Shown here piece by piece: positions 42,956 to 62,717 of a DNA stretch of 64,000 bases; position 1 is the stretch's first letter; every line of letters starts with the position of its first letter. Source of the DNA: Archaeoglobales archaeon (GTDB taxonomy: Archaea > Halobacteriota > Archaeoglobi > Archaeoglobales > Archaeoglobaceae); NCBI GenBank assembly GCA_030055525.1, contig JASFYJ010000003.1:124001-188000 (forward strand). The letters are read 5' to 3'. The translations under genes were made by a program, and so were the position numbers. The notes below the pieces were generated by a model that was not told where the DNA came from, ran no database searches, and saw only the letters and a program-made list of their open reading frames with translations.

Positions 42956-43050
42956 AGTAGATTAACAATAGTGAAGATATATATCTCTTTCGTAAAAGGG
43001 CATGACAAAATTTATAACTTCTTTATTGGACTCTAATTGATCTTTAATGC

Positions 43051-43130
43051 CGGGGTTGCAGAGTGGTACTGCGCCGGCCTTGAGAGCCGGTGCCCTTTGT
43101 GGCTCCTGGGTTCAAATCCCAGCCCCGGCG
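43051..43130 (+). tRNA. tRNA-Ser (anticodon TGA), class II with variable arm
   Basis: GCCGGGG…CCCCGGCG, loop CTTGAGA, long variable arm, T-arm TGGGTTCAAATCCCA. Confidence 0.93.
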
Positions 43131-43332
43131 TCTTGATGCTGCTTTTTAAAAATTAAGATTTTTAAAACTTCCAATTCGAAATCTCCAGTTGCAGTATTAT
43201 ACTGTCTCCCAAAAAGAAATTGAAGTTCAGTAAATTAAGTAATGACTTATTAGAAACTTTTTGAGGCAACTCTTTTGATCTAAAATTTCTAACCCCTTAG
43301 CATTAAAAACGAATGAAAAGATCTTTCGATGA

Positions 43333-45969: not shown

Positions 45970-46126
45970 TTAGGAAATGAAAGTAGTTCAAATGCAGCAT
46001 GGTAACTTGGATGTTAAAGTAGACCTCTTTCAATTCTAAATTTATCCGCTAATAGAGTCCCTCTAATAAAGAGACTTTGAATTCTTTTTATTTAGTTGTA
46101 AAACTAGAAATTTGGACTTTTTGATT

Positions 46127-46440
46127 TTAAACCTGCCTACATAGACCTTCAATAAGCTCAATCCACTTCTTTGCTATATTTTCCCACCTTAGCTCAGCTG
46201 GTGCTAGGAAATTCTTTTTTGGACCCTCATAAATCCTTTGCAATGCTTTAGCGATGCTTTCTGCATTTGCTTCAACAAAATAAGTCCCCTCGTAATTTGA
46301 AAGGGACTCAAAAAGACCACCGACTTTCGTGGCTATGATTGGAAGCCCAAAACTCATTGCGATGTGTGCAACTCCGCTCTGCGAGGCTCTTAAGTATGGC
46401 AAAACAAGCACATCGCCTGCAGAAAAGTATAGGAAATTTT
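46127..46440 (-). pseudogene. C-terminal remnant of a GT4 glycosyltransferase
   Basis: YFSAGDVLVLPYLRASQSGVAHIAMSFGLPIIATKVGGLFESL (GT4 C-terminus) with no N-terminal half adjacent. Confidence 0.75.
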
Positions 46441-46564
46441 TCTTTATTTAGCATTTACTACTTTTTGTGCTTATTGGGTATTACAAAAAGCCATCATATT
46501 ATATAAAGACTTTTCATCTATCAGACTTTAAAAAGTTTTAAAATCTTAAGCCATATTTATAACT

Positions 46565-47518
46565 ATGATCTCTGCCTTAATCTTTTCAATGAACAGAGTT
46601 GAGAACGTAGTTAAGCTTTCTGAGAAAATAAAGGATTATGTTGACGAAATCGTGATAATAGATTCCTCGGACAAAGAAAAATTTGAGGAAATGAAGAATA
46701 GAATCCCTTATGCAAAGATTTACTGGCTTCCACCTCTTGGAATGGCCGACTTTTACTATAAAATTGGACTAGAGCTCTGCAAAAACGAATGGATTCTGCA
46801 CTTGGATGATGATGAAGAGCCAAGCGATGAGCTTTTGAAGGATTTAAAGCTATTGATTGGTAGTGATCACAAAGTCTACTCTATTTGGAGGATTAGTAAA
46901 AGTTCGAAAATGTGTCAGAGAATTTTTAGACTATTTCACAAAAAGTATATCGTTCCATCCGGCGTAATTCACTTAACTTGGTTTTCTAAGGTAAAACCAG
47001 TCCTCTTAGACAGGAAATACCACATAGTCCATTATGAAGAAGACGTTAAAATAGAAAAAATTAAAAATTATGCTATTATAGATTCGTGGCAGTTTTGTTG
47101 TAAGATTTGTTTTTTGATTTTGGAAACCGAATATTATACCCTAAGTAAACTGCTTAATTCTATCAGAAAAATAGGGAAAATCATTTCATATAAATCCAAG
47201 CTTGGGAAATTTGGTTGGTTTTTGTTGAGTTTAGAATTTAACATCTTTATATCTTTGTATCGCGTTAAATTATATTTTAATAATTTTAAATATTTGTTCT
47301 ACTATTCTATTCTTTATAGTATATTTTTCCAGATTTATCTTCTCAAAGACTTTTCAAAAAAACTTGAAGCAAGCTTAAAGATGTGGGATAAGGGGGTTTT
47401 CGAATTTCTCGGAGTAGATAGTTACGAGAATGCCTTGAAAAACTTAGAAGAATTGAACTCGATAAATGGATTAGAAAACTTTGTTAAACTGGTTAAGAAA
47501 AGATTGCGAAATTTTTAA
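46565..47518 (+). CDS. GT2-family glycosyltransferase (copy 1)
   Basis: MISALIFSMNRVENVVKLSEKIKDYVDEIVIIDSSDKEKF, ILHLDDDEEPSDELL; paralog of 51788-52783. Confidence 0.8.
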   Translation: MISALIFSMNRVENVVKLSEKIKDYVDEIVIIDSSDKEKFEEMKNRIPYAKIYWLPPLGMADFYYKIGLELCKNEWILHLDDDEEPSDELLKDLKLLIGSDHKVYSIWRISKSSKMCQRIFRLFHKKYIVPSGVIHLTWFSKVKPVLLDRKYHIVHYEEDVKIEKIKNYAIIDSWQFCCKICFLILETEYYTLSKLLNSIRKIGKIISYKSKLGKFGWFLLSLEFNIFISLYRVKLYFNNFKYLFYYSILYSIFFQIYLLKDFSKKLEASLKMWDKGVFEFLGVDSYENALKNLEELNSINGLENFVKLVKKRLRNF

Positions 47519-47519
47519 A

Positions 47520-47818
47520 ACATTACGACTTAAAAAGATCCTAAAATCCATTTTACCAAGTCTATAAGCTTTTATCCAGCTTATTGGATTGTTCCAGTCC
47601 AAGATTTCGTGAACTGAGACTTTTGAATTAAAATCGATTCTTGTCAGATTTTCTCCGACTCTCTTCCATCCTGGAAAAAGCCTTTTCGGGAGCATTTTTC
47701 TGAAAAGGATTGCCTTAACTTCAGCATGAGCAGAGAGGGCATTTGCTAAGCGAATCGTGTAATAGCTTATTCCTGAAAGAAAAAGTTTTGATGGACCAAA
47801 GATTGCAATCCTCATCAA
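47520..47818 (-). pseudogene. N-terminal remnant of a GT4 glycosyltransferase
   Basis: MMRIAIFGPSKLFLSGISYYTIRLANALSAHAEVKAILFRKMLPKRLFPGWKRVGENL…; reading frame runs into antisense of the GT2 3' end. Confidence 0.7.
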
Positions 47819-47938
47819 GACAAAGAAATTCTTAGGTTATTAAAACTGTTCTACTAAAAAGGGAACAAAAAATCGCTCTATAATTCTGAAAATGAACTAA
47901 AGACAAATTTTCCCTTATTTCCCCAGCTCGGCTGATCG

Positions 47939-48271
47939 TTAAATAATTTTTATCCAATACTTCTTCGCATCTCTTAGCACCGTAGAAATCTCCTTTTCAA
48001 CTTCCGCACTCGTGAACGGTAAGACTTCTAAATTTCCAAGCTCTTTTTTCCATATAATTTCATTCACGAGATCCAACCTCTTTAGAAACTTCATTTTTTC
48101 AAAACCGTCTGAGATTACAATCAAATCCACGTCACTCGTTTTTAACCAATTCCCTTTTGCGTAGCTACCGAAAAGATAGATTGAATCAACTATAAAACCT
48201 CTTTTCTCGAGCTCTTCCTTTAAAATCTCAGCTTTTCTCTTTATTTCTGATAAAACCTCTTGCATAATCAA
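47939..48271 (-). CDS. MNT nucleotidyltransferase (pair 1)
   Basis: FGSYAKGNWLKTSDVDLIV (GSx10DxD). Confidence 0.88.
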   Translation of the reverse strand: MIMQEVLSEIKRKAEILKEELEKRGFIVDSIYLFGSYAKGNWLKTSDVDLIVISDGFEKMKFLKRLDLVNEIIWKKELGNLEVLPFTSAEVEKEISTVLRDAKKYWIKII

Positions 48272-48647
48272 AGATCTCTTCTGCTATTTTTAAAGCTCTT
48301 TCCGCTTCGATTCTATCAACGCTTTCCGAAGGCAATCCGTTGGCAGCGTCGGGATACCTTGAGACCGTGTATTATTTGTTCAAAACAAACAACTGCTCTT
48401 CAAGTTCATCTGAAAGCTTAAATCCCGTTTTTTCCTTTAAAATTCTGTATAGTTCCGTAACGCTCTGAATTTTTGGCGGATCTTCTCTTGCCATTTCAAT
48501 GAAAAGAGCTTTTAGGACTTTTTCAACTGCCTGTTGAGCAAAAAAAGCACTTCGAAAATATCTTCTACTCGTAAAAAAGGATCTTGAATCCAACAGGTCT
48601 TCCTCAGCAGTTCTTAGCCATAGCTCCGTTTCTCTTCTCATATCCAA
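48228..48647 (-). pseudogene. HEPN protein (pair 1) interrupted by a single in-frame TAA at 48372-48374
   Basis: …LEEQLFVLNK*YTVSRYPDAANGLPSESVDRIEAERALKIAEEIFDYARGFIRNKEKS*; same frame continues past the stop and overlaps the MNT start. Confidence 0.85.
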
Positions 48648-48781
48648 AGCAGATTACTTTTTTTAATTCCTGTATTTTAAAAATAAAAATTTTTCTGACA
48701 ACTGAAACTCGTTCTTTAATAGCCTTGCAAAGCTGATGAGTTTGCAAAATATTTTTATTTTTTCTTCGTTTTCTTATTTAG

Positions 48782-49159
48782 ATGAAAAAAGAGATCGAGG
48801 TATTTTTGAGACGTGCAGAAGGGTTTATAAAAGATGCACACGAAGATCTGAAAAGAGGAGATTATGATTTGGCTATGTTTCACGTTGAGCAGGCTTGTCA
48901 GTTGATTTTGAAGGCAAAGCTTTTGGATCTGACTGGCTACTTCGAAAAAACGCACAGCTTAAGAAAGCTAATAGAGAGGCTTTCAGAAATTTTTTTGCAT
49001 GAAGAACTCAATGAGTTTTTAAAGGAGAATTGGAACACGCTGAGAAGCCTTGAATTTGCTTATCTTTCTTCACGATGCTATCCAGAGGAGTTCCAGAAAG
49101 AAGAGGTTGAAGAAGCTTTAGAAATGTATAAAGCGTTGAGGGATCTGATTTGGGCTTGA
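48782..49159 (+). CDS. HEPN protein (pair 2)
   Basis: FHVEQACQLILKAKLLDLTGYFEKTHSLRKLI … YLSSRCYPEEF. Confidence 0.85.
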   Translation: MKKEIEVFLRRAEGFIKDAHEDLKRGDYDLAMFHVEQACQLILKAKLLDLTGYFEKTHSLRKLIERLSEIFLHEELNEFLKENWNTLRSLEFAYLSSRCYPEEFQKEEVEEALEMYKALRDLIWA

Positions 49160-49479
49160 AAGACATTTACGAACGCAGAAAGAAATACTTTGAGAATCTC
49201 GAGATTTTTTTGCTCGAGATAAAGAAAATTGTAAAAGAAGAGGTTCCTGATGCGGAGCTCTTTCTCTTTGGTTCAGTTGCCGAGGGAAATTACTCGATCG
49301 GATTGAGCGACATAGATCTAGCGATTGTTTCCGACGCCTTTTTGAATAGGGATCTAAAGTTGAAAGTTTTTGGGGAACTGCTTGAGAAGTTCTTCGACTC
49401 GCCATTCGAATTCCATGTATTGACGAAGGAGAGATGGGAATACTACAAGAGGTTTGCTAAAAAGTTTAGAAGCGTTTAA
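49150..49479 (+). CDS. MNT nucleotidyltransferase (pair 2)
   Basis: FGSVAEGNYSIGLSDIDLAIV; overlaps HEPN by 10 nt. Confidence 0.87.
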   Translation: MGLKDIYERRKKYFENLEIFLLEIKKIVKEEVPDAELFLFGSVAEGNYSIGLSDIDLAIVSDAFLNRDLKLKVFGELLEKFFDSPFEFHVLTKERWEYYKRFAKKFRSV

Positions 49480-49557
49480 TCGATAGTATAAATTCAAGCT
49501 TCTCAGCTTAGGCTTTTGACCGAGAAGACATAAATATTTGACCGCTGAAGAAATCAT

Positions 49558-49926
49558 GTGAAAGAAGAGATTGAACTTTACCTTAAAAGAGCAAAGAAGT
49601 TCGAGGAGAACGCCAAGTTCAACTTTGAAAGAAAAGACTACGATATCGCAATGTTTCATATTGAACAGGCGATGCAGTTGATAATTAAAGCAAAGCTTTT
49701 GGATGAGAAGGGCTATTTTGAGAGAACCCATAGCCTCAGAAAGCTCTTGCATGAGCTCAAAAACGATGAAGTGAAAAAATTTGTTGAGAAGTATGAGAAA
49801 GTTTTGAGAGATCTTGAAAGAGCTTACATTACTTCGAGATACTACTTTGAGGAATTTTTCGAAGACGAAGTTCTTAGGGCTTTTGAAGCTCTGAGAGAAA
49901 TAAGGGCGATACTATGGAAAGAGTAG
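49558..49926 (+). CDS. HEPN protein (pair 3)
   Basis: FHIEQAMQLIIKAKLLDEKGYFERTHSLRKLL … YITSRYYFEEFF. Confidence 0.86.
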   Translation: MKEEIELYLKRAKKFEENAKFNFERKDYDIAMFHIEQAMQLIIKAKLLDEKGYFERTHSLRKLLHELKNDEVKKFVEKYEKVLRDLERAYITSRYYFEEFFEDEVLRAFEALREIRAILWKE

Positions 49927-50228
49927 AGTATTTCAAAAATTACAAGAAATATTTGCAAGAGATTGCTGAACTTGTTTCAAAGATTTGCAAGGACTTTGAA
50001 ATCTTTGTCTTCGGCTCTTTGATTCGCGGTGATTTTTCGATCGGGCTCAGCGACATTGACGTTGCAATCGTTTCAAACGAGTTCGAAAATAGAGAGAAAA
50101 GGCTAATGGTTTACGATTTGCTTTTTAACAAATACTTCGACTCCCCTTTCGAATTTCATCTGCTTACAAGAGAAAAATGGGAGAAATTTTTGAAGTTCGT
50201 TGGAAAAGATTTTGAAAAGATCGTTTAA
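49914..50228 (+). CDS. MNT nucleotidyltransferase (pair 3)
   Basis: FGSLIRGDFSIGLSDIDVAIV. Confidence 0.87.
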   Translation: MERVEYFKNYKKYLQEIAELVSKICKDFEIFVFGSLIRGDFSIGLSDIDVAIVSNEFENREKRLMVYDLLFNKYFDSPFEFHLLTREKWEKFLKFVGKDFEKIV

Positions 50229-50270
50229 TCTCTGCATTAAAGCTAAATACTTAGGCGCGGAATTGTTTAC

Positions 50271-50657
50271 GTGAAAGAAGAGATAGAGGTCTTCGCTGAA
50301 AGAGCTAAAAAGTTTGAAGAAATCGCAAAATACCTTTACAGGACAAAAGTCTTTGATTTATCCGCTTTCAACGTTGAGCAGGCTTTACAGCTTTACCTCA
50401 AGTTCATACTTGCAAAGGATTTGGGATATTTTCCAAAAACCCATAGTTTAACAAAGCTTTTCAACGATTTATCGAAGCTCGATAAAGCTTTTTTGGAATT
50501 TTACGAGGAGAACGAGATAATAATAAAGGACATAGAAGACGCCTACATCCTTTCGAGATACTTGCCGAGAGACTATTCTGAAAAGGAAGTGGAGCTGATG
50601 ATAAATACTCTTGAAAAATTCAAGGAGAGGTTTAAAGAATGGTTGTCGAGAGATTGA
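50271..50657 (+). CDS. HEPN protein (pair 4)
   Basis: FNVEQALQLYLKFILAKDLGYFPKTHSLTKLF … YILSRYLPRDY. Confidence 0.86.
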   Translation: MKEEIEVFAERAKKFEEIAKYLYRTKVFDLSAFNVEQALQLYLKFILAKDLGYFPKTHSLTKLFNDLSKLDKAFLEFYEENEIIIKDIEDAYILSRYLPRDYSEKEVELMINTLEKFKERFKEWLSRD

Positions 50658-50968
50658 TAGAAGAAAGGAAAAAGAGGGAAGAAATTTTTAGGAATCTCGA
50701 GTTTCATCTCAGAGAATTGAAGAGAATTGCTGAGAATTACTTTGGAAATTGCAGAGTTTTTCTCTTTGGCTCAGTTGCTCGTGGAGATTACGACTTGATG
50801 CTCTCTGACATCGACATCGCAATTGTCACCGATTGCAATGATAGGGAGAGAATCCTGAAATTCAAAGCTGAGATTTCGCGGAGATGGTATTTCTTTGAGT
50901 TGCACGTGCTCGATGAAAGAAAATGGGAGTTCTACAAGAGATTCATCGATGTCTATAAGGAGTTCTGA
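50639..50968 (+). CDS. MNT nucleotidyltransferase (pair 4)
   Basis: FGSVARGDYDLMLSDIDIAIV. Confidence 0.87.
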   Translation: MVVERLIEERKKREEIFRNLEFHLRELKRIAENYFGNCRVFLFGSVARGDYDLMLSDIDIAIVTDCNDRERILKFKAEISRRWYFFELHVLDERKWEFYKRFIDVYKEF

Positions 50969-50969
50969 G

Positions 50970-51710
50970 CTAACTCTTCATTTTCATTGACAAATGCCAA
51001 AGAATGTCGTAGCAGAGCGGGATGGAGATTAGATGGAAGCAAAATCTAAACCTTGGATCGTTTCTTATTCTCTCCCATTTCGTTAATTTTCTTGGATAGC
51101 AAATGATTGGAGGATTTTTAGGATCGTGATGCTCAGAATAGGCTATAAAGCCTCGGTATATTTTTGCTCTTAGTTTTACGAGGTCAAATTCAAAATAAAC
51201 TCCTTCATCAATTACTCTACCATTTTTCTCTTTGCATCTAAATCTAATCTTTTCTATGACCCACCTTTTGATCAAAGTCCCGCCGAAGCCTGTCAGGTTT
51301 ATTCCTTTAGGATTTCCTCTGTCAAGATAGCCATTGTAAACAACATCGTAGAAATTCGCAAATTCGAGCAGTTTGTTAACGATTTCAGCTTCGAAGATCA
51401 TGTCCGAATCCATGAAGATTAGAAAATCCGCGTCACTTTGGAGAAAGTATTCTCTTATAGCATTTCTTGCTGAAACTATGTTCCAGATTCTATCCTTCGC
51501 ATTCAAAGGCTTATGAACTTCAAATTCGATTACTTCAAAACTATTTCCAACTTTTTTTCTTAATTCTTTTGCAAATTCCTTTTCTTCCGTTGCAAAAACT
51601 GTTTTGCATTCGATTTTTGAAGCTTTATGGATCTCTTTTTGATTCTCGATGGACTTCTCAAGAATAAAGGCTGATTTCGAATTTACTGGAGCTCAGATTA
51701 TGGCTTTCAT
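50970..51710 (-). pseudogene. Glycosyltransferase-like gene with premature TGA at codon 6
   Basis: ATG 51708-51710 reads MKAII*APVNSKSAFILEKSIENQKEIHKASKIECKTVFATEEKEF…, continuous in frame with supplied ORF 50970-51506 (DADFLIFMDSDMIFE). Confidence 0.7.
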
Positions 51711-51787
51711 AGCATCAGATTTTATTTAAGCTTTTTTAGTTTTACGGTATCGAAAAGCTTTAAAAAACTAGTCAATATTTAAGAACG

Positions 51788-52783
51788 ATGATCTCTGCCT
51801 TAATCTTTTCGATGAACAGAGTTGAGAACGTAGTTAAGCTTTCTGAGAAAATAAAAGGTTACGTTGACGAAATCGTGATAATAGATTCCTCGGACAAAGA
51901 AAAATTTGAGGAAATGAAGAATAGAATTCCCTATGCAAGGATTTACTGGCTTCCACCTCTTGGAATGGTTGAACTTTACTATAAAATTGGACTCGAGCTC
52001 TGCAAAAATGATTGGATTTTGCACTTAGAGGATGATGAAGAGCCTAGCGATGAACTTTTGAAGGATTTAAAGAAAATTATAAGTAAAAATGATAGTAAAG
52101 TTTATGCAATTTGTAGAAAGGAAACTAAATCAAAACAAGCGCATGAAATTTTTAGACTTTTTCATAAGAATTACGTAGTGCCTTCTGGATTAATTCACTT
52201 TGTCTGGGCTTCTAAAGTTAAGCCATTTGTTTTAGATCGAAGATACTACATATTACATACCGAGATGGAAACAAATTTTAAAAAATTAAAAAAATTTTCG
52301 ATTTTTGAGTCTTGGCAACTATGCTGCAAGATACTGTATTTAATATATGGAGCTCAAATAACTCATTTTAAAAATCAGAATACATTTAATTTTATGAAAA
52401 AAATAGGAAAAATACTTTTTTACCAGTCTAAGCTTGGAAAATTTGGATGGTTTTTGCTGGCTACGGAATTTAACCTTTGCTATTTATTACTTTTTTTGAT
52501 GAAGTCTTCAAGAACTCTTAAATTTATAGTCTACTCGCTTATATACTCGCTATTCATTCAGATCAACCTCCTCAAAGATTTTTCAAAGAAGCTCGAAGCA
52601 AGCTTGAAAATGTGGGAAATGGGTGTTTTTGAGTTTCTAGGACTCGATAGCTATGAAAATGCTTTGAAAAGCTTGAAAGGTATAGATTCGGGGAATGGCT
52701 TGGAGAACTTTTTTAGGTTGATTGAGATAAGATTGAAAAATTTAAAAAGTGAAAATAATAGGACTCTAAAACACACTATTTAG
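51788..52783 (+). CDS. GT2-family glycosyltransferase (copy 2)
   Basis: Paralog of 46565-47518; near-identical first ~95 codons, diverged middle. Confidence 0.8.
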   Translation: MISALIFSMNRVENVVKLSEKIKGYVDEIVIIDSSDKEKFEEMKNRIPYARIYWLPPLGMVELYYKIGLELCKNDWILHLEDDEEPSDELLKDLKKIISKNDSKVYAICRKETKSKQAHEIFRLFHKNYVVPSGLIHFVWASKVKPFVLDRRYYILHTEMETNFKKLKKFSIFESWQLCCKILYLIYGAQITHFKNQNTFNFMKKIGKILFYQSKLGKFGWFLLATEFNLCYLLLFLMKSSRTLKFIVYSLIYSLFIQINLLKDFSKKLEASLKMWEMGVFEFLGLDSYENALKSLKGIDSGNGLENFFRLIEIRLKNLKSENNRTLKHTI

Positions 52784-52866
52784 CCGAGACTTTATTTACA
52801 GCGTTGAGGTTGCGATTTATACTAAGTGGAAATATAGGAAAAACCAAAATTAAAAGCGGAAATACA

Positions 52867-53991
52867 TTATATTATTACTCTTCTTAAATTTTTTTCTAAC
52901 TCTCGGGCGCATTTTTCCCAAGTAAAATGCCTCTCTACCCTCTCTCTACCTTTCTTTCCCATTTTTTCAGCAACATCTGGATTATCTAAAACGTATTCTA
53001 TGGCATTTGCAAATTCCCTTTCATCTCGGTTAGTTAAAATACCCGTCAAACCATCAAAAACTGACTCTCTAAGCCCCCCCTCTCTCACAGCTACCACTGG
53101 CGTCCCACATGCCATTGATTCTACCGCAGTTAATCCAAAAGGCTCCATTACGTGTGCTACAGCGGTTAATTTTGCTTTATTGTAAAGATATACCAATTCG
53201 CTGTCTTCGATGTTCTCCTTTATTTCTAATACAACTCCCAAATTTTCAGCAAGCCTTCTTAGATAACTCTTGATTTTCTCTGATCCGCTTCCAACTACAA
53301 TCAACTTCGGTCTTTTTTGCTCTGGAATCAATCCTAAAGATCTTAAAACAAAATCGTGGGCCTTTATAGGGTGTATCACTCCAACCGATAAAATAAAATT
53401 CTCTTTTTCAGTTTCAACCCTTCTAAACTTCTTAATGTCAACGCCAAGATAATTGGTTATTGAGAAAATGCCATATATTTTATAAATGTATTCGCGAGTA
53501 AAGTCGGAGTTAGCTAAGACTAAATTTGCTCTTCTAACAGAATACTTGTCAATATAACTATAAGGCAGATAAGCTAACTTTATAAAGAATTCGTTGGGCT
53601 CATATACCACCCGAACGGGTTCTTGACAATAATAAACCTTGGGAATTTTCAGGAAAGGTATTATAGGAGAAGAAAAAAAATGGTGAACAAAAGCTACATC
53701 GTAATTCCCCTTATTTATTCTCTTCGAAAGCCTGTAAAGAGAAAGAATAGAGTAATTTCTCAAAAGAGAACGCATTCTTGCGAGATGAGCTGAGGGTTTC
53801 ATATTTACGCATCTCAGAGTGTATGTTCTAATATCATTCTCTCTGAATTTTTCTAAGAAGTAATTTGAAATCGTAACCGTGTAGACGTCAATATCATGTC
53901 CTCTGGATTTCAAAGATGTGACCATCTCTAAAAAAGCTCTTTCCGCACCTCTTAATTGAATCAAATGACTTTGAACCGCAGCTATTTTCAT
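52867..53991 (-). CDS. GT4-family glycosyltransferase
   Basis: RGAERAFLEMVTSLKSRGHDIDVYT; VMEPFGLTAVESMACGTPVVAVREGGLRE. Confidence 0.93.
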   Translation of the reverse strand: MKIAAVQSHLIQLRGAERAFLEMVTSLKSRGHDIDVYTVTISNYFLEKFRENDIRTYTLRCVNMKPSAHLARMRSLLRNYSILSLYRLSKRINKGNYDVAFVHHFFSSPIIPFLKIPKVYYCQEPVRVVYEPNEFFIKLAYLPYSYIDKYSVRRANLVLANSDFTREYIYKIYGIFSITNYLGVDIKKFRRVETEKENFILSVGVIHPIKAHDFVLRSLGLIPEQKRPKLIVVGSGSEKIKSYLRRLAENLGVVLEIKENIEDSELVYLYNKAKLTAVAHVMEPFGLTAVESMACGTPVVAVREGGLRESVFDGLTGILTNRDEREFANAIEYVLDNPDVAEKMGKKGRERVERHFTWEKCARELEKNLRRVII

Positions 53992-54266
53992 ATTTATTTG
54001 GTTTTGCCAAAAAATATTAATTTTTTGTTTTGAATAAAATCATAATTTTTATATTTATTTCATATAAATTAAGCTCGACAAAAATCGTTTTAAAATCGTA
54101 TTTAGAGTTAATGAAAAATTAACCGTTAACAAGAAGCGTAAATTCAACGAGTATCTTTAAAAAATTTTGTTAAATAAAAAACTTTTAGAGAAGGGGTAAC
54201 TTTTCAGATGTTAAATGCCAAATTTTTATAGAATTGGTATTTGAGACGTGTGCTTACGCAAAAACA

Positions 54267-55091
54267 CTAAAAGAAAAACAAGTCTTCATCTCCTTTATTC
54301 ACAAGCTTAAACCTATAATCATCCCTTATCGAAAGAATGAGCTCGGGAATCTTCTTCTTGTCATCAGGCAAATGGTAGGCTGAGATTGCCATCTTTGGTT
54401 TGAATTTCCTTATTGTTTCCTTTGCACCCTTGATTATTTCTCTTTCGTAGCCTTCAGTATCGATTTTTATGAAATCAACTTTTTCGATATTGTTTTCTTC
54501 AACGAATTTGTCTATTGTTGTTGTTTTTACTTTCACACTTTTTTCATACTTTTGCCATCTCAAAATCGTGTTATCTCTACTTTTTAGCAATGTAGAAACA
54601 GTTCCGAGCTCATTAGTCAAGAATAATTCAGCTTCTCCTTCAAAAGAAGATAAAGCCAAGCAAAAGGGCTCTATTTTTTCTTTATCCCAAATGTTTGCAT
54701 GTTCTTTGAGAATTTCAAAAACATATGGATTTGGCTCGAAAGCGTAGATTTTCTTTGCCCCCTTTTGCAAAGCGTAATAAGAAAAGAAGCCGAAATGTGC
54801 TCCGACATCGAAAACGATGTCTCCTTGAGCAACATGGCATTCTGGAATAGAATACATCCCACCCATTATAAATGTTGCCTCAAGTGAGTAAGCTACTGCT
54901 TTTGGGAGCTTAAATTTCTTGCCTTTCCACTTCAGAATTTCTCCTTCCTTTAATTCAGCTTTGTAAAAACTCGGATAATTGTGTGCTAAGTAAAGCTTCA
55001 AACTCGTTTTACCACTCAAAACTTCAAAGAACTCCTTTACATAGCGATAGAAAAGCTTAGGATACTCTTTCTTCGGAATTCCATCGAGCAT
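54267..55091 (-). CDS. FkbM-family methyltransferase
   Basis: VFDVGAHFGFFSYYALQKGAKKIYAFEPNPYVFEILKEH; VDFIKIDTEGYEREIIKGA. Confidence 0.9.
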   Translation of the reverse strand: MLDGIPKKEYPKLFYRYVKEFFEVLSGKTSLKLYLAHNYPSFYKAELKEGEILKWKGKKFKLPKAVAYSLEATFIMGGMYSIPECHVAQGDIVFDVGAHFGFFSYYALQKGAKKIYAFEPNPYVFEILKEHANIWDKEKIEPFCLALSSFEGEAELFLTNELGTVSTLLKSRDNTILRWQKYEKSVKVKTTTIDKFVEENNIEKVDFIKIDTEGYEREIIKGAKETIRKFKPKMAISAYHLPDDKKKIPELILSIRDDYRFKLVNKGDEDLFFF

Positions 55092-55150
55092 AAAATCTTT
55101 TAAAGCATTGGCATATAAAATTTTTTCAAAATCTTAATCAGAAGAATTTT
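54952..55150. repeat. 199-bp 5'-end repeat, copy 1 (matches 56106-56304)
   Basis: Aligned by eye; 133 nt (55018-55150) identical to 56172-56304, mismatches only in the gene-internal part. Confidence 0.95.
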
Positions 55151-55456
55151 TGCAGTTTTCCAAAAAACTCATGACATATTTTGATCGCATAGTTTTTTCG
55201 TATATTCATAGAGAAATGCTACTAGGAATTTTTCTGTTTAAAAAATTAGCGGTTTTTTGAGCTTATTCTTTCTATTGAGCGTCTAGTCACTTTTATTTTA
55301 CACTGGAAATTCAAAAAAAGCCTTAAAAATTTTTATAGGCTATTCTGGGGGTTTTGGACAAAAAAGGATGGACAAAAGAGCTTTAGATAGAAGTAGACTT
55401 TTCAATTGGAAAAATTCAGAGACTTTAAAGTTTTATGAAGCTGTCTTTGAAAAATA

Positions 55457-56245
55457 TCAAATTTTATTATTTTTGTATAAACAAATAGCAACAGCTCTAG
55501 CAGAAGGAGTTTTAAAATCATATTTTAGATTTAGGCAAGAATCAGCGCCGCATTGCTCCCATTCACAAATAGAAACTTTTTTCATATAAAAAATCTTGTC
55601 AAAAATTACAGGATTTTTATTCTCATTTTTTAATAGCTCGTCAACAACAGGATTATAACCAACGGGAAGTGTTATCACTAGCAAACCATTTTCAGCTAAT
55701 AGATCTTTTAAGTTAGATACAGCTCTAAATATTTTTCCTGGTTCTCGTGGTTTTTCATCCCAACCTACATGTTCTAAAGTAGAAATACTAAATATAAAAT
55801 CAAATTTATCATTCAAGGAGAAATCGACAACGTCCTCATTTATCACGTTTGGTGCTTTTTCATATTTGTCAACAATTACATGCTTGACATTAAAATAATG
55901 AGAAAAAACGTTTCCAATCTCTAATATTTTTAATTTTTTACTTAAATATTCTAAATATAGATTGTATACAATTGGTATCTCTACAGCTCTCTCATTTTTC
56001 CATGTAGTATTGTAGCTATGATAAAAATATTTATACTTCTTGCCTTCAAAAATAAATTTACTTGGGAGGGATGCCCCCTCCCACTTCAAAACTTCCCCCT
56101 CTCTAAATTCAGCTTTGTAAAAACTTGGATAATTATATGCCAAATAAAGCTTCAAACTCGTTTTCCCACTTAAAACTTCAAAGAACTCCTTTACATAGCG
56201 ATAGAAAAGCTTAGGATACTCTTTCTTCGGAATTCCATCGAGCAT
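55457..56245 (-). CDS. SAM-dependent methyltransferase (type 11-like)
   Basis: LKILEIGNVFSHY, FDFIFSISTLEHVGWDEKPREPGKIFRAVSNLKDLLAENGLLVITLPVG. Confidence 0.8.
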   Translation of the reverse strand: MLDGIPKKEYPKLFYRYVKEFFEVLSGKTSLKLYLAYNYPSFYKAEFREGEVLKWEGASLPSKFIFEGKKYKYFYHSYNTTWKNERAVEIPIVYNLYLEYLSKKLKILEIGNVFSHYFNVKHVIVDKYEKAPNVINEDVVDFSLNDKFDFIFSISTLEHVGWDEKPREPGKIFRAVSNLKDLLAENGLLVITLPVGYNPVVDELLKNENKNPVIFDKIFYMKKVSICEWEQCGADSCLNLKYDFKTPSARAVAICLYKNNKI

Positions 56246-56304
56246 AAAATCTTTTAAAGCATTGGCATATAAAATTTTTTCAAAATCTTAATCAGAAGAA
56301 TTTT
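56106..56304. repeat. 199-bp 5'-end repeat, copy 2 (matches 54952-55150)
   Basis: See copy 1; covers the promoter, start codon and ~45 codons. Confidence 0.95.
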
Positions 56305-56317
56305 ACACAAGCTCAAT

Positions 56318-56722
56318 TTAGTCAGCGCCATGTATTCTCTTCTTGACAAATTCAACGATTTCTTCTGCCATTTTAACCGCTTCTATTGCATAATCTCTCG
56401 AGTAGATTCTTGCGGGAATGCTATCTGGAATGCTGTTGGAATATCTCGTAGGAACATAATAGCTGTCTAATATCGCCCATTTTTTCGATTTATCAGCAAA
56501 AGATTCGTCGTATTTTGAGCATGCATGGCATAGCCTCTATCGAGTGTCCAACTACTATATCTTCTCCGTTGTGATACAGAAAAGCCTTAAGTGCCTTATC
56601 TCCGATTTGCTGAGCTAAAAAGGAATGTGATATCCTACTCTTTCCGCTAAATCTTTCACCCACTTCAGGTCTTCGATAGCCTGTTCAAGCCATCTTCTAC
56701 CTTCTTTGAGAGAATCTCTCAT
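56318..56722 (-). pseudogene. Frameshifted HEPN gene (pair 5)
   Basis: [35 protein letters not shown] then other frames [30 protein letters not shown] and YYVPTRYSNSIPDSIPARIYSRDYAIEAVKMAEEIVEFVKKRIHGAD*. Confidence 0.85.
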
Positions 56723-57047
56723 AAAGAACTACCTCGTTTTCCAATGCTTTCTTCAGAAAACTGCTATTATTCATTTTCTCAAATTCCTCTGGCGTGTAGC
56801 AAATTATGTCTGCATCAACGGGTAATGATAGCAAAGAGTATATTTCCCTAACCCTTTCTAAGAAATTCTTTTCTGTTCTCATTACGATCAAAACGTCAAG
56901 ATCTGTGAACAAATCCGCTCTACTTGGATAAGAGCCAATCAAGCTGATTCTCTCTACTTTATCCCTCAGTTTTTCTACAATCACTTCAACTGACTTCTGC
57001 AGCAATTCAACATATCTCCGCCTTTCCTCATCGATTTTCTCTTGCAT
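56697..57047 (-). CDS. MNT nucleotidyltransferase (pair 5)
   Basis: IGSYPSRADLFTDLDVLIV (GSx9DxD). Confidence 0.82.
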   Translation of the reverse strand: MQEKIDEERRRYVELLQKSVEVIVEKLRDKVERISLIGSYPSRADLFTDLDVLIVMRTEKNFLERVREIYSLLSLPVDADIICYTPEEFEKMNNSSFLKKALENEVVLYERFSQRR

Positions 57048-57367
57048 CCTAATTTTTCATTTTAGCAGAGCTAATAAAGCTTGGTTATCTTTTTACTTCA
57101 GTCTGGTTTTCCGCAAATATTCCCCATGTGATCCTTCTCCTTTTCTCTTCTGGTAGCTTTTTTCACGGAAGCATGTGCTTCATAAGTTATAGAAGCTATC
57201 ACCGCCTCAGAACCTTGAATTGGGATCTAAGCCAGCCATGAGTTTCTTTTCAAGACTTCAGCCATTTTAAGTTTAAAAATCAAATTTATGGTAAGAATTC
57301 TTAGCTCTTGTCATGCGGGTATGAAAAGCAACGATAAGCTTAAAAATTTCCTTGCGGATTCGTTTTA

Positions 57368-57853
57368 ATGGATGAGCCATATAAAAGCATACTCGAAAAA
57401 CTCCTTGAAGCTTTAAAGGAGAAATACAACGATAGACTAATTTCTGTTGTTTTATTCGGCTCAGTAGCAAGAGGAGAAGCGAGGAGAGATAGCGACATTG
57501 ATCTTCTTCTCGTGATCGAAGGATTGCCGAAGAGCAGATTAAAGAGACAGGAAGAGTTTTTGGAGGTTGAAAGCAATTTGGTCGAAATGATAGAAGCGTT
57601 AGAAGACTACACGATTGAAATCTCTCCAATTATGAAGACGCCTGAAGAAGTAGCAAAATACCCGCCAATACTGCTTGATATGGTTGAGGATGCGATAATA
57701 CTGCACGATAGAAACGATTTCTTTAAAAATCTGATCGAAGATCTGCGAAAAAAGCTCGAAAAGCTCGGAGCGAAAAGAGTAAGAATGGGAAAAAGATGGT
57801 TCTGGATCCTAAAGCCTGATTACAAGTTTGGAGAGGTGATAAAGATTGAATAA
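57368..57853 (+). CDS. MNT nucleotidyltransferase (pair 6, longer form)
   Basis: FGSVARGEARRDSDIDLLLV. Confidence 0.9.
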   Translation: MDEPYKSILEKLLEALKEKYNDRLISVVLFGSVARGEARRDSDIDLLLVIEGLPKSRLKRQEEFLEVESNLVEMIEALEDYTIEISPIMKTPEEVAKYPPILLDMVEDAIILHDRNDFFKNLIEDLRKKLEKLGAKRVRMGKRWFWILKPDYKFGEVIKIE

Positions 57854-58270
57854 CATCTCTATGGCAAGATCCTATCTTCGCCAAGCTGAGGAAAGATTAA
57901 AGCATGCTAAAGAAGCTTTTGAAGATGGAAACTATCCCTACACGATAAGAGAGTGTCAGGAAGCTGTAGAGCTCTCGCTTAAAGCTGCTTTGAGAATTGT
58001 CGGAATAGAACCACCAAAAATTCACGATGTCGGGCCATTGCTGAGAAAGAATTCGCATCTTTTCCCAGATTGGTTCAAACAGAATATAAATAGAATGGCT
58101 ACAATTTCGAGAACGCTGAGAAGGGAAAGAGAAGTAGCATGTATGGTGACGAAGAACTCTTATTGACTCCTGAGGAAATTTAATGCGAAGATGATGCAAA
58201 AAATGCCCTGCTCGATTGTGAATTTGTGCTTCAGAACTGCAAAAAGCTTCTGGATTCTGTTTTGAGATGA
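57846..58270 (+). pseudogene. HEPN gene (pair 6) with frameshift near 58140 and a further in-frame TAA
   Basis: ARSYLRQAEERLKHAKEAFEDGNYPYTIRECQEAVELSLKAALRIVGIEPPKIHDVG… then, in a shifted frame, YGDEELLLTPEEI*CEDDAKNALLDCEFVLQNCKKLLDSVLR*. Confidence 0.82.
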
Positions 58271-58276
58271 TTCAAA

Positions 58277-58711
58277 TTGGCAGAAAAACATATTAATGCA
58301 CAGGCGAAATGTCTTCAAATGAGAGGAGAAGCTAAAAGATGGTTCAGTGAAGCCCTCTGGGATTTAGAGACTGCGAAAATATTGCAGGAGAAGGGTAGAT
58401 ATAACTCTTCTGTTTTCTACGCACATCAAAGCGCTGAAAAGGCGGTGAAGGCTTTACTTTACTCTCTAAACGAAGTTCCTTGGGGACATAGTGTAAGAGA
58501 GCTCCTTGAAAGGTTTTTTGAGAGAATTGGAGAAAGGGAGGAAAAGATGTTAAGCTTCGCAAGAGAGCTCGATAGACATTATATAACATCGAGATACCCT
58601 GATTCCCTGCCTTCAGGAACTCCACATGAAGCTTATGATGAAGAAACCGCAAGAAGAGCTGTTGAAATTGCAGAAAGTGTTGTTGAGTATGCAAGAAAGT
58701 TCATCAGATGA
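58277..58711 (+). CDS. HEPN protein (pair 7)
   Basis: YAHQSAEKAVKALLYSLNEVPWGHSVRELL … FARELDRHYITSRYPDSLPSGTPHEAY. Confidence 0.9.
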   Translation: MAEKHINAQAKCLQMRGEAKRWFSEALWDLETAKILQEKGRYNSSVFYAHQSAEKAVKALLYSLNEVPWGHSVRELLERFFERIGEREEKMLSFARELDRHYITSRYPDSLPSGTPHEAYDEETARRAVEIAESVVEYARKFIR

Positions 58712-59108
58712 AATTCTTAGGGAAGCTGTGAATAAGCTCAAGAAAAGCTATAAAGTCCATGCTATAATTCTATTTGGTTCGAGAGCCAGAAAAGACCACA
58801 AGCCATGGAGCGATTACGATTTATTGATCATTGCAGATTTCAAAGAAAAATTTTTGGAAAGAATTGGCAAACTTCTCGAGCTTCTCCCTTCAAAGGTCGA
58901 ACCGCATCCTTACACGCTAAGTGAGGCGATTGAAATGCTAAAAAGGGGGAATATAACGCTCGTTGACGCGTTAGAAGAAGGAGTTTTGCTTTACAGCGAC
59001 GAAGAATTCGAGATCTTAAGGCAAATTTATAAAGAAATGGTAGAAAAAGGACTTAGAAGGAGCAAAGTTTCAATAATCCTGCCAGAATTCAAGGAAACAG
59101 ATTCTTAA
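58689..59108 (+). CDS. MNT nucleotidyltransferase (pair 7)
   Basis: ILFGSRARKDHKPWSDYDLLII; ATG at 58689 overlaps HEPN. Confidence 0.88.
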   Translation: MQESSSDEILREAVNKLKKSYKVHAIILFGSRARKDHKPWSDYDLLIIADFKEKFLERIGKLLELLPSKVEPHPYTLSEAIEMLKRGNITLVDALEEGVLLYSDEEFEILRQIYKEMVEKGLRRSKVSIILPEFKETDS

Positions 59109-59157
59109 AAGATCTAAGTTAAGATAGCTCAATTTATACCCAGAAAGATTTTTAACT

Positions 59158-59352
59158 TTGGAGAGAAAAGAAATTTCAATGAGTTTTGAAGCAGCAGAAA
59201 TACTGAAGCGAAGAGCGGAATCTTTTTTAAAGAATGCAGAGGATCTGCTGAAGGATTTTGGGAAAGTTCTTGAAAAAGAGAAAGAAGTTATGGAGTTTAT
59301 TGAAGCAAACATAAGCCATTTAGGAGCCGTTGAAGCTGAAGAAATTTCTTGA
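59158..59352 (+). pseudogene. Short HEPN remnant (pair 8), apparently internally deleted and C-terminally truncated
   Basis: SFEAAEILKRRAESFLKNAEDLLKDFGKVLEKEKEVMEFIEANISHLGAVEAEEIS* lacks the FHxEQAxQL core and SRY motif. Confidence 0.5.
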
Positions 59353-59358
59353 CGAGCT

Positions 59359-59700
59359 ATGTTCGAAACGAGCTTAGATCTGAAAAAGGCAAAAGAATAC
59401 TTCGAAAACTTCATTTACTATGCAGAGAAAATTAAAAAAGCCGCTATCGAAGTGCTGGGAAATGCAGAAATCTTTGTTTTCGGTTCTGTTGTTAAAGGCA
59501 AAGCTACAATGGCAAGCGACATAGATCTACTGATTGTTTCGAATCTATGTCCAAGGTTGATTACAGAAAGGGCAAAAAAGATTGTCGAAATTCTCAAAAA
59601 GGCGGAAATAGATTTTTTCGCTCCTTTTGAAATCCATCTGATAAACGAGAGAGAGTTCGAGTGGTATAGAAAATTCATAAAGAAGCTTTTAAAAGTTTGA
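59359..59700 (+). CDS. MNT nucleotidyltransferase (pair 8)
   Basis: FVFGSVVKGKATMASDIDLLIV. Confidence 0.88.
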   Translation: MFETSLDLKKAKEYFENFIYYAEKIKKAAIEVLGNAEIFVFGSVVKGKATMASDIDLLIVSNLCPRLITERAKKIVEILKKAEIDFFAPFEIHLINEREFEWYRKFIKKLLKV

Positions 59701-59747
59701 ACTCGAAGCGCAACGCAAATTTTAAAAACAAGATTCATATTAAATCC

Positions 59748-60977
59748 ATGAACTTTGAAAATCGGAGGGTTTTAATTACCGGTATAAGCGGTTTCGTTGG
59801 TTCTTATCTTGCAAGATACTTGCTAAATCAAGGAGCGGAAGTCTATGGCATTTTAAGAAGAAGAGCAGACTGGTCTATTCCTCAGAATCTTGTTGAAAGA
59901 GGAATATATGGGGATTTGAAGCTAATAGATGGAGATTTGCTTGACATCTCCTCAATTGCTCGAGCTTTAGACGTATCACAGCCAGAAATCGTTTTTCACC
60001 TTGGCGCACAATCCTTTGTTCCTCAATCTTTCGTGAACCCTGTTGAGACGATGCAAACAAACTGCATCGGGACTCTGAATTTGCTTGAAGCAATAAGAAT
60101 CAAAAACATAGACCCAGTTGTTGTTTTTGCGGGTTCAAGCGAGGAATACGGGCTTGTCATCAGTTCTGAAAAGCAATATCAAAGAATAAAGTCTCAGGGC
60201 AAAACCATTCATCCTGAGCCCGAAAGAATTCCGGAGTTGCCAATAAAAGAGACGAATCCATTGAGACCGATGTCGCCATATGCGGTGAGCAAGGTATACG
60301 GAGATTTTCTTTTCAGGAATTACTATCACTCCTATGGCTTGAAGACAATAGTTTCGAGGGCTTTCAACCACGAAGGAGCGGGAAGGGGAAAGATGTTTGT
60401 CACCGCCAACATAGCATTGCAAGTTATGAAGCTTCGATTTGGAGAAGTTGACAGAATAAGCATTGGAAACGTTAACGCATTTAGAGACTGGAGCCACGTA
60501 GAAGACATTGTCAAGGGCTATTGTTTGCTTGCCCTCAAAGGAAAATATGGGGAAGTTTACAATCAAGGCTCTATGAGAACTAATTCTGTGCTTAGCTACA
60601 TACTTCTTGTCTTAGAGATGGCTGGCTATACGATTGAGAGAATTGAAACCTTCAAAGGTGAAAAAAAGGTCGAGAAGCCAACTGAGATAAGCGATTCGGA
60701 GTTCTTTGGTGTGAAGTTCGAAAAAACTGTGATTGATGAGATGATGCTTAAGGATGAAATCTACTTCGAGCTCGAAGACAAGGGAATCTTTGCCTTCACA
60801 GATAAGGGGAAAGTTGCCATAGAATTCGATGCAACTCGCTTCAGACCAGCTGAAGTTCCAATTTTGCTTTCAGATACCAGAAAGGTTCAAGATTTGGGAT
60901 TCAGGGCTGAACACAGCATTAAAGACATTATAAGAGACCAGCTGAACTACTATCTCGATGCAAGAAGAAGGAATTAA
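59748..60977 (+). CDS. NAD-dependent epimerase/dehydratase (GDP-mannose 4,6-dehydratase-like)
   Basis: VLITGISGFVGSYLARYLLNQGAEVYGI; SPYAVSKVYGDFL; RAFNHEG. Confidence 0.92.
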   Translation: MNFENRRVLITGISGFVGSYLARYLLNQGAEVYGILRRRADWSIPQNLVERGIYGDLKLIDGDLLDISSIARALDVSQPEIVFHLGAQSFVPQSFVNPVETMQTNCIGTLNLLEAIRIKNIDPVVVFAGSSEEYGLVISSEKQYQRIKSQGKTIHPEPERIPELPIKETNPLRPMSPYAVSKVYGDFLFRNYYHSYGLKTIVSRAFNHEGAGRGKMFVTANIALQVMKLRFGEVDRISIGNVNAFRDWSHVEDIVKGYCLLALKGKYGEVYNQGSMRTNSVLSYILLVLEMAGYTIERIETFKGEKKVEKPTEISDSEFFGVKFEKTVIDEMMLKDEIYFELEDKGIFAFTDKGKVAIEFDATRFRPAEVPILLSDTRKVQDLGFRAEHSIKDIIRDQLNYYLDARRRN

Positions 60978-61289
60978 CTCAGAGCAGAATTCCCCCTCTA
61001 AAGCTTTTTTAACCGTCCCTATCTCATTCTTTTTCTTTTCGAACTCCTCCTCTGTGTAACAAAATACGTCAAGATGTTCTTTTTTGTCCCAAAACTCGTA
61101 GATAAAGCGAATTCTATCGAGAAAATGCATTCCCTTAAACTTTTCGCTTATCAGAATTAAATCGAAATCCGAAGTTTTTAAATAATCTCCTCCCACTCTG
61201 CTGCCGAAAAATATCGCTTTCAATTCCCCTATTTCTTTTCTTAGCTTTTCAACAAACGCCTTTATCTCTGCAATTCCCTCCTCACCCAT
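60870..61289 (-). CDS. MNT nucleotidyltransferase (pair 9); 3' end runs into antisense of the epimerase gene
   Basis: FFGSRVGGDYLKTSDFDLILI; residues after KKALEGEF are antisense of 60870-60977. Confidence 0.8.
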   Translation of the reverse strand: MGEEGIAEIKAFVEKLRKEIGELKAIFFGSRVGGDYLKTSDFDLILISEKFKGMHFLDRIRFIYEFWDKKEHLDVFCYTEEEFEKKKNEIGTVKKALEGEFCSELIPSSCIEIVVQLVSYNVFNAVFSPESQILNLSGI

Positions 61290-61444
61290 TCTACCACCTT
61301 CTTAGCATTTTCAAGCTTTCTCTTGGCGGTACTATCATCGTATATCTCATAAGGGACTTCTTCAGCAACGTCAGGACATCTTGAGATTACAAAATCTGGC
61401 GTTAAATCTCGCAGTATTCCCAAGAACTCTTCTGTTTTAGCCAT
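61262..61444 (-). pseudogene. N-terminally truncated HEPN (pair 9)
   Basis: MAKTEEFLGILRDLTPDFVISRCPDVAEEVPYEIYDDSTAKRKLENAKKVVEWVRRELQR corresponds only to the C-terminal half of the SRYPD-type HEPN. Confidence 0.7.
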
Positions 61445-61477
61445 TTACTCGCTTCTTCTATCACAAACTTAGTAGTC

Positions 61478-62539
61478 TTATCGTTTAAAATCTTTTTCAA
61501 GTGTAGCAAAGTATACTTCCTTCGTTTTCTCAGCAACCTCATCCCAGCTCGGAACGCTAACATTTTCAACTTCAACTTCTGAAGCTTTTTTAATCAGTTC
61601 CGCAAGCTTTGCTGGCTTTGGAGGATATTCAATACCAAAAACGTTTCTCTCATCGACCCATTCAGCTAAAGCAGAAGTTTTTGCAACAACACAGGGAGTT
61701 TTGCTTGCCAAGGCTTCAGCAACAACCAAACCATAGGCTTCAAACTTTGAAGGCAAAGCCAAGACGCTCGCTTCGGCGTATCTCTTTATAAGCTCTTCTC
61801 TGCTCAGATCTTGATAGAACTTTATTCTGCTGAGAACTCCGAGTTTCTTTGAAAGCTTTATAATTTTGCCCTTATAGCTTCCCTTACCAACGATCTCAAG
61901 CTCAAAATCTGGTAAAAATTTTAGAGCTTTAATTAAATACTCTAACCCCTTGTATTTTTCTATTCTGCCAACGTACAGAATTTTCTTTCCTATTTTACTC
62001 TTTTGGAGAAAGTCTTTGTTTACTCCCAATGGAATTGCAACCACTTTGAATTCTTCGACTTTAAAATCCCTCAAAATTAGTCTCTTTTCAAACTCGGAAT
62101 CACATATTATCGCATCAACTTTTTCAAAAACCTTTTTACCATAGATCTTGTAGAAGCGGAACAGGACATTCCTGAAAAAACTGTGCCCATGGCCGTGATA
62201 GTGAGGGGTAAGAATAAACACCCTTGGATTTGAAAGCCCAGCGTATAAAGCTGGCAAGGCATGGAAGTTGTGAGCATGAATTAAATCGTAATCTTCTGCA
62301 TGCCTTTTCAAAAATCTTCGAAGCTCATTGGAGAAAAAATATGCGTTGCTCGGAGCATAAGATTTGAATCTCCTAACTTTAATGCCTTCGATCTCTTCGA
62401 ATTTTGCAAGTTTTCCGCTTGGATCTGTCGTAAGAACTTCGACTTCGAACTCCTTCATTCTTTTTGCCAATTCATAAACATGCGTCTCGACACCACCTAT
62501 GTAAGGATAAAACCTAGGAGTAACGTATGCGATCTTCAT
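61478..62539 (-). CDS. GT4-family glycosyltransferase
   Basis: PYIGGVETHVYELAKRMKEFEVEVLTTDPSG; LALPSKFEAYGLVVAEALASKTPCVVA. Confidence 0.94.
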   Translation of the reverse strand: MKIAYVTPRFYPYIGGVETHVYELAKRMKEFEVEVLTTDPSGKLAKFEEIEGIKVRRFKSYAPSNAYFFSNELRRFLKRHAEDYDLIHAHNFHALPALYAGLSNPRVFILTPHYHGHGHSFFRNVLFRFYKIYGKKVFEKVDAIICDSEFEKRLILRDFKVEEFKVVAIPLGVNKDFLQKSKIGKKILYVGRIEKYKGLEYLIKALKFLPDFELEIVGKGSYKGKIIKLSKKLGVLSRIKFYQDLSREELIKRYAEASVLALPSKFEAYGLVVAEALASKTPCVVAKTSALAEWVDERNVFGIEYPPKPAKLAELIKKASEVEVENVSVPSWDEVAEKTKEVYFATLEKDFKR

Positions 62540-62717
62540 TCATAATCAATAGCTTTGAGGATATAAAGCATTTTAGTAAACTACTCAGATCTTCGAGCCT
62601 GCCAGTTCCACTAACTAGTTTATTAGTTACATAAAAAAGGTCAGAAGAATTGAAGAAATCGATAAATATCCTCGATGATTTTCAAAACACTTATAAAATT
62701 GCAAACAAAAAAATTCC

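What the first reader, a model, noticed from the sequence alone, without database searches (positions are those of the whole stretch)
47939..61444. Nine HEPN/MNT modules in 13.5 kb; every MNT is open but about five of nine HEPN partners are broken
Seen: nine MNT ORFs (47939-, 49150+, 49914+, 50639+, 56697-, 57368+, 58689+, 59359+, 60870-), each keeping a GSx(9-11)DxD signature. HEPN partners: pairs 2, 3, 4 and 7 intact; pair 1 has one nonsense codon; pair 5 is frameshifted; pair 6 is frameshifted plus nonsense; pair 8 looks deleted; pair 9 lacks its N-terminal half. Established: in characterised HEPN/MNT systems the HEPN is the toxin and the MNT neutralises it by nucleotidyl transfer. Inference: selection to keep antitoxins while toxins decay, either because orphan MNTs protect against other copies or because HEPN activity is costly.
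Basis: partly seen in the sequence, partly recalled or inferred. Interest (0 to 1): 0.82.

Follow-up and report, generated by a model that had tools for sequence, protein, structure and literature searches.

The report
Archaeal toxin-antitoxin island losing its toxins
An archaeal surface-sugar gene island, shared recently with a distant relative, carries nine toxin-antitoxin pairs in which the toxin gene breaks first and the antitoxin gene only later; this order of decay supports HEPN as the poison and does not require selection for keeping orphan antitoxins.

Summary
In detail: nine MNT ORFs with the GSx(9-11)DxD signature, four open HEPN partners, five broken. Corrections: the end of MNT9 is frame-shifted, and open HEPN2 has lost a conserved Tyr. 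The genome (Archaeoglobaceae draft) has 12 such pairs, seven with a broken HEPN. A same-genus genome (core DNA 68-71% identical) carries the same ~16-kb island at 94-97%, with a different set of broken HEPNs: HEPN1 and HEPN9 are intact there, HEPN3 and HEPN7 broken. So the island was recently exchanged, most lesions are unlikely to be assembly errors, and toxins die repeatedly. In 71 pairs from other genomes, HEPN-only breakage outnumbers MNT-only 19:2 (p=2e-4). Retention of MNTs by selection is not shown: damaged MNTs are more frequent where the HEPN is already dead (7/31 against 2/61, p=0.006, partly hand-scored), MNT8 evolves almost neutrally, and HEPN6, dead in both copies, still shows omega 0.03, so low omega predates the lesions. 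Best explanation: ordered decay, toxin first and antitoxin later, on a mobile TA-rich island. The parts are known; the quantified order supports HEPN as the toxin although RX4HXY is absent in all 76 open HEPNs.

The parts
47939..48271 (-). MNT1, open
   Evidence: PF01909 52.5 bits; omega 0.12 vs G008
48267..48647 (-). HEPN1, broken by an in-frame TAA at 48372-48374; conserved His also changed (KIQS). Open copy in G008
48782..49159 (+). HEPN2, open; conserved Tyr changed to Cys (G008 keeps Tyr)
49150..49479 (+). MNT2, open
   Evidence: PF01909 55.1 bits
49558..49926 (+). HEPN3, open here; 101-bp deletion in G008
49914..50228 (+). MNT3, open
50271..50657 (+). HEPN4, open in both copies
50639..50968 (+). 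MNT4, open
56348..56707 (-). HEPN5, broken: three segments in different frames; broken in G008 as well
56697..57047 (-). MNT5, open here; premature stop at codon 19 in G008
57368..57853 (+). MNT6, open
   Evidence: PF01909 54 bits
57846..58268 (+). HEPN6, broken: frame change near 58130 plus in-frame TAA; broken in G008 too, partly by different lesions
58277..58711 (+). HEPN7, open here; 1-nt deletion in G008 at 58514
58692..59108 (+). MNT7, open (overlaps the end of HEPN7)
59158..59352 (+). HEPN8 remnant with a large internal deletion; a further 91 bp gone in G008
59359..59700 (+). MNT8, open; omega 0.66 vs G008 (relaxed)
60870..61289 (-). MNT9; frame change near 60994 replaces the C-terminus with a tail antisense to the epimerase gene; 103-aa copy in G008
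61262..61444 (-). HEPN9 C-terminal remnant; 178 bp more are present in G008, where HEPN9 is open
46107..62542 (.). Island shared with G008 at 94-97% nt identity (nine HEPN/MNT modules plus glycan genes), against 67-73% for flanking and core DNA
43048..43132 (+). tRNA-Ser(TGA) near the left edge of the variable region; possible integration site (inference)

Best explanation
A horizontally exchanged surface-glycan island of Archaeoglobaceae carries nine PF05168-HEPN/MNT toxin-antitoxin modules that are being dismantled in a fixed order. While the HEPN is an active toxin its MNT cannot be lost, so the first tolerated lesion falls in the HEPN (nonsense, frameshift, deletion, or loss of the conserved His or Tyr). 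Once the HEPN is dead the MNT loses its purpose and decays later. What the window shows is a snapshot between the two steps. Shown: the asymmetry, independent HEPN losses in two copies of the island, the exchange of the island between distant species, and damage to some orphan MNTs. Inferred: that these HEPNs are toxic, that the MNT neutralises by nucleotidylation, and that the cost or pointlessness of toxin activity drives the first loss.
For: HEPN-only vs MNT-only breakage 28:2 in 92 modules (p=9e-7; 1e-5 after length adjustment), 19:2 without G000/G008 (p=2e-4), 13:1 in closed or near-closed genomes (p=0.002) (states). Six lineage-specific HEPN ORF losses between G000 and G008 (G000: HEPN1, HEPN9, C9:104129, C3:16014; G008: HEPN3, HEPN7), none starting with the MNT. 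Island 94-97% identical while core and flanks are 67-73%; the G008 contig carries its own CCA-enzyme region at 67% to G000, so misbinning is unlikely. MNT damage commoner where the HEPN is dead (7/31 vs 2/61, p=0.006). MNT8, beside the most deleted HEPN, has omega 0.66, against 0.087 pooled for MNTs 1, 2, 3, 4, 7, 9. In the f1-family loci scanned, no open HEPN away from a contig end lacked an adjacent MNT remnant, apart from partial matches inside long unrelated ORFs.
Against: MNTs with partners broken in both copies pool to omega 0.22, clearly below 1 (p=6e-6), and differ from the rest only at p=0.07. On ORF breaks alone the MNT excess in HEPN-dead modules is not significant (3/31 vs 2/61, p=0.33), and the 7/31 count includes hand-scored damage. 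One closed genome (G010, L048) has an open HEPN beside a truncated MNT. Identity along the island is mosaic (0-6% divergence), so lesion ages cannot be dated. Module states were curated by hand from profile matches, and the loci were chosen around HEPN hits.
Confidence: 0.75

Rival explanations
1. Orphan MNTs are kept by selection because they neutralise HEPNs of other copies or of incoming islands (anti-addiction, cross-protection).
For: MNTs with dead partners still have pooled omega 0.22; MNT8 is 41/38/35% identical to MNT2/3/4, whose HEPNs are open; the island is exchanged between species; the anti-addiction precedent is reviewed in PMC2654758.
Against: Some orphan MNTs lose GS, gain a stop or a new tail; MNT8 omega 0.66; every open HEPN in the window has its own open MNT; HEPN6 shows that low omega predates the lesions.
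Confidence: 0.12
2. The lesions are sequencing or assembly errors in a draft genome.
For: G000 is a 16-contig draft; HEPN1 (TAA) and HEPN7 (in G008, 1 nt in a T run) are single-base lesions seen in one copy only.
Against: Six of nine broken HEPNs of G000/G008 involve deletions or several frame changes (HEPN3, 5, 6, 8, 9, C3); HEPN5, 6 and 8 are broken in both species; the same asymmetry is 13:1 in closed or near-closed genomes; errors would also hit MNTs.
Confidence: 0.04
3. General decay of a redundant island that happens to hit HEPNs because of chance or gene length.
For: One glycosyltransferase gene is split in the window and another is disrupted in G008.
Against: Length-adjusted p=1e-5 for HEPN vs MNT over 92 modules, most of them in unrelated loci.
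Confidence: 0.06
4. MNT is the toxin and HEPN the antitoxin (the original 2009 prediction, PMC2701414).
For: Proposed from comparative genomics.
Against: 28 modules keep an open MNT, nearly all with the catalytic signature, beside a broken HEPN, which should then be lethal.
Confidence: 0.03

Closest known systems
Archaeal HEPN-T (PF05168, COG2250)/MNT (COG1708, PF01909) modules (PMC2701414, PMC3710099)
   Same: Same families, adjacent two-gene layout, expansion and clustering in thermophilic archaea, mobility, many solo genes
   Different: Nine modules in one glycan island held by two species, with about half of the HEPNs broken, in a toxin-first order
HepT/MntA and HEPN-MNT of Shewanella and Legionella (type VII TA; PMC7641770, PMC11586414)
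   Same: HEPN beside MNT; MNT neutralises HEPN by nucleotidyl transfer (shown there)
   Different: The RX4HXY motif is absent in all 76 open HEPNs examined here; they carry a conserved upstream His and an RY motif instead
Decaying chromosomal TA loci such as ccdO157 and hok-sok in E. coli (reviewed in PMC2654758, PMC7167474), and orphan antitoxins in Klebsiella (PMC7192599)
   Same: Chromosomal TA decay by nonsense mutations, deletions and toxin-inactivating changes; orphan antitoxins common
   Different: Archaeal HEPN/MNT; toxin-first order counted over 92 modules and seen as different losses in two copies of one exchanged island

Membership tests
HEPN-T/MNT two-gene modules (PF05168 + PF01909) | HEPN member matches PF05168 above the curated cut-off | tested here: met
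   HEPN2, 3, 4, 7 at 82-112 bits; HEPN1 and HEPN6 65-67 bits for the longest fragment
HEPN-T/MNT two-gene modules (PF05168 + PF01909) | MNT member matches PF01909 and keeps GSx..DxD | tested here: met
   Eight of nine above the cut-off, MNT5 at 20 bits; GSxDxD in all nine
HEPN-T/MNT two-gene modules (PF05168 + PF01909) | Adjacent, same strand, overlapping or within ~200 bp | tested here: met
   Distances 15-206 bp between profile matches; HEPN8 is only a remnant next to MNT8
HEPN-T/MNT two-gene modules (PF05168 + PF01909) | HEPN is toxic and MNT neutralises it | not testable with these tools
   Decay order is consistent with it; no assay
HepT/MntA (type VII TA as characterised) | RX4HXY motif in the HEPN | tested here: not met
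   0 of 76 open HEPNs
HepT/MntA (type VII TA as characterised) | MNT nucleotidylates a Tyr of the HEPN | not testable with these tools
   A Tyr is conserved in 72 of 76 open HEPNs; modification not shown
Horizontally acquired genomic island | Near-identical block in a distant genome with diverged flanks | tested here: met
   94-97% vs 67-73%
Horizontally acquired genomic island | Integrase, attachment repeats or tRNA junction | tested here: inconclusive
   tRNA-Ser at 43048-43132, no tRNA in the G008 loci; no search for integrase or attachment repeats was made
Anti-addiction / orphan antitoxin under selection | Orphan antitoxin evolves under purifying selection after the toxin died | tested here: inconclusive
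   Pooled omega 0.22, but HEPN6 shows that lesions postdate much of the divergence, and some orphans are damaged

The most novel reading that the evidence does not exclude
The orphan MNTs form a retained antitoxin set that lets the host accept exchanged islands carrying related HEPNs, so toxin loss with antitoxin retention is an adaptive immunisation against TA-bearing mobile islands.
Probability: 0.1. Interest if true: 0.75.

Novelty: new member of a known kind. Interest (0 to 1): 0.45.

Why it matters
HEPN/MNT is among the most abundant two-gene modules in thermophilic archaea, and which partner is the toxin was first predicted the other way round. For the PF05168 HEPNs, which lack the motif of the characterised HepT toxins, the order of decay is an independent genomic argument that HEPN is the toxin. 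Two copies of one island with different sets of dead toxins also give ready-made natural mutants for testing cross-neutralisation.

Tried and rejected
Recoding or programmed readthrough of the HEPN stops: rejected, because premature stops lie at scattered positions and codons and G008 has Tyr at all three G000 TAA sites. Misbinning of the G008 contig: rejected by its diverged flanks and CCA-enzyme region. Apparent reverse cases (HEPN open, MNT broken): L032a and L047 turned out broken in both genes; L033b has a broken MNT with GS changed to DS, and its open HEPN has lost the conserved His; L048 is a real reverse case. dN/dS as proof of selection on orphan MNTs: rejected as uninformative, because HEPN6, broken in both copies, has omega 0.03. 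A first dN/dS of HEPN6 and HEPN9 used wrong frames and was redone; HEPN5 used wrong frames and was redone (omega 0.44); consequently the pooled 'HEPN dead (5,6)' figure is not used. The script stopped on a division by zero before its last two comparisons. The one genome-contig scan returned three Archaeoglobales/Archaeoglobaceae MAG loci and no copy of the island. Literature searches for published counts of toxin-first decay returned nothing on point; the 2009 ccdO157 decay paper is not held. No structure was predicted.
Full report
What is there. The window lies on contig C10 of a 1.56-Mb, 16-contig draft genome (98.5% complete). The nearest named relative of MNT2 is in an Archaeoglobaceae MAG; G001, G005 and G008 are classed as same genus. 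Between about 46 and 62.5 kb lie glycan genes and nine HEPN/MNT modules. PF01909 finds 17 places and PF05168 ten places in the genome; three further HEPN/MNT pairs lie on C9 (two) and C3 (one), two of them with a broken HEPN.

State of the nine pairs. HEPN2, 3, 4 and 7 are open. HEPN1 carries an in-frame TAA; HEPN5 is in three frame segments; HEPN6 has a frame change and a TAA; HEPN8 is mostly deleted; HEPN9 keeps only its C-terminal half. All nine MNT ORFs are open and keep GSxDxD, but MNT9 changes frame near 60994 and gains a tail antisense to the epimerase gene. HEPN1 has also lost the conserved His and HEPN2 the conserved Tyr.

A second copy of the island. G008 contig C7 carries the block 46107-62542 at 94-97% identity, while core DNA is 68-71% identical and the flanks on the same G008 contig, including the CCA-enzyme region, are 67-73%. 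The block was therefore exchanged recently between distant species. Divergence along it is mosaic, 0% to 6%, so more than one exchange is likely. In G008, HEPN1 and HEPN9 are open, HEPN3 has a 101-bp deletion and HEPN7 a 1-nt deletion; HEPN5, 6 and 8 are broken in both; MNT5 has a stop at codon 19 and MNT9 ends normally. On other contigs, G000 has broken and G008 open HEPNs at C9:104129/C10:65399 and C3:16014/C2:165325.

Is the asymmetry general? I scanned 82 loci from about 20 genomes with HEPN and MNT profiles built here, chained fragments into copies, and curated states by hand, leaving out G044 (another family of the phylum) and copies at contig ends. Of 92 non-redundant modules, 59 are open in both genes, 28 have only the HEPN broken, 2 only the MNT, 3 both (p=9e-7; length-adjusted 1e-5). 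Without G000 and G008 it is 19:2 (p=2e-4); in seven closed or near-closed genomes 13:1 (p=0.002). The loci were chosen around HEPN matches and the states were hand-curated, so the exact ratio should be redone blind.

Selection on orphan MNTs? Between the two copies, MNTs 1, 2, 3, 4, 7, 9 pool to omega 0.087 and MNTs 5, 6, 8, whose partners are broken in both copies, to 0.22 (Fisher p=0.07; neutral expectation rejected, p=6e-6). This does not show selection after orphaning: HEPN6 is broken in both copies yet has omega 0.03, so its substitutions mostly predate its death or were brought in by exchange. MNT8, beside the most deleted HEPN, has omega 0.66. MNT damage is commoner where the HEPN is dead: 3/31 vs 2/61 for ORF breaks alone (p=0.33), and 7/31 vs 2/61 after adding four hand-scored events, namely GS loss in G000:C3 and L043, the MNT9 tail and the MNT5 stop in G008 (p=0.006). 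GS loss was scanned in all MNTs; the last two events were found only because G000 and G008 were compared closely, so this test is suggestive rather than firm.

Mechanism. The simplest account is ordered loss: an active toxin forbids loss of its antitoxin, so the HEPN goes first and the MNT follows. Reviews describe chromosomal TA decay by deletion, nonsense mutation and inactive toxins (PMC2654758, PMC7167474), and orphan antitoxins are common in Klebsiella (PMC7192599). That HEPN is the toxin is shown for HEPNs with RX4HXY (PMC11586414); none of 76 open HEPNs here has that motif. They have a conserved His upstream (71/76) and an RY motif (Tyr 72/76), matching the alternative site proposed for AF0298-like HEPN-T proteins (PMC3710099). 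In two open HEPNs of G000 one of these residues is lost while G008 keeps it (C9:95870 GQS vs GHS; HEPN2 RC vs RY), which suggests missense inactivation as well.

Verdict. The asymmetry needs no benefit from orphan antitoxins. The families and the decay of TA loci are known; what is added is the count, the exchanged island with two different sets of dead toxins, and a polarity argument for PF05168 HEPNs.

Noticed in passing
window 16501-17150: CRISPR-like array with identical spacers repeated in tandem (period 71 and 69, 2.4 copies each at 100%).
   Followed up: no
window 46127-46411 and 47471-47818: One glycosyltransferase gene split by a ~1.1-kb insertion carrying a paralogue (46565-47518) of 51788-52783; the gene is whole (378 aa) in G008 at L025:18094-19230.
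   Followed up: partly
window 50970-51506: Glycosyltransferase gene open here; two 1-nt indels and a stop in the G008 copy.
   Followed up: no
window 48372-48374, HEPN6, and G000:C9:104129-104506: All three nonsense codons in G000 HEPNs replace a Tyr that G008 keeps, and all are TAA; whether this is chance or a mutational bias was not tested.
   Followed up: partly
window 52000-54000 and 55500-56000: Near-zero divergence from G008 (0-1%) inside an island otherwise 2-6% diverged, pointing to several exchanges.
   Followed up: no
L048 (G010:C1:246515-246850): Closed genome with an open HEPN beside an MNT that has lost its N-terminus, next to a transposase-like ORF: the one clear reverse case.
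   Followed up: partly
L019 (G000:C9), L020 (G000:C3) vs G008: Other HEPN/MNT regions are also 93-97% identical between G000 and G008, so these species share several exchanged regions.
   Followed up: partly
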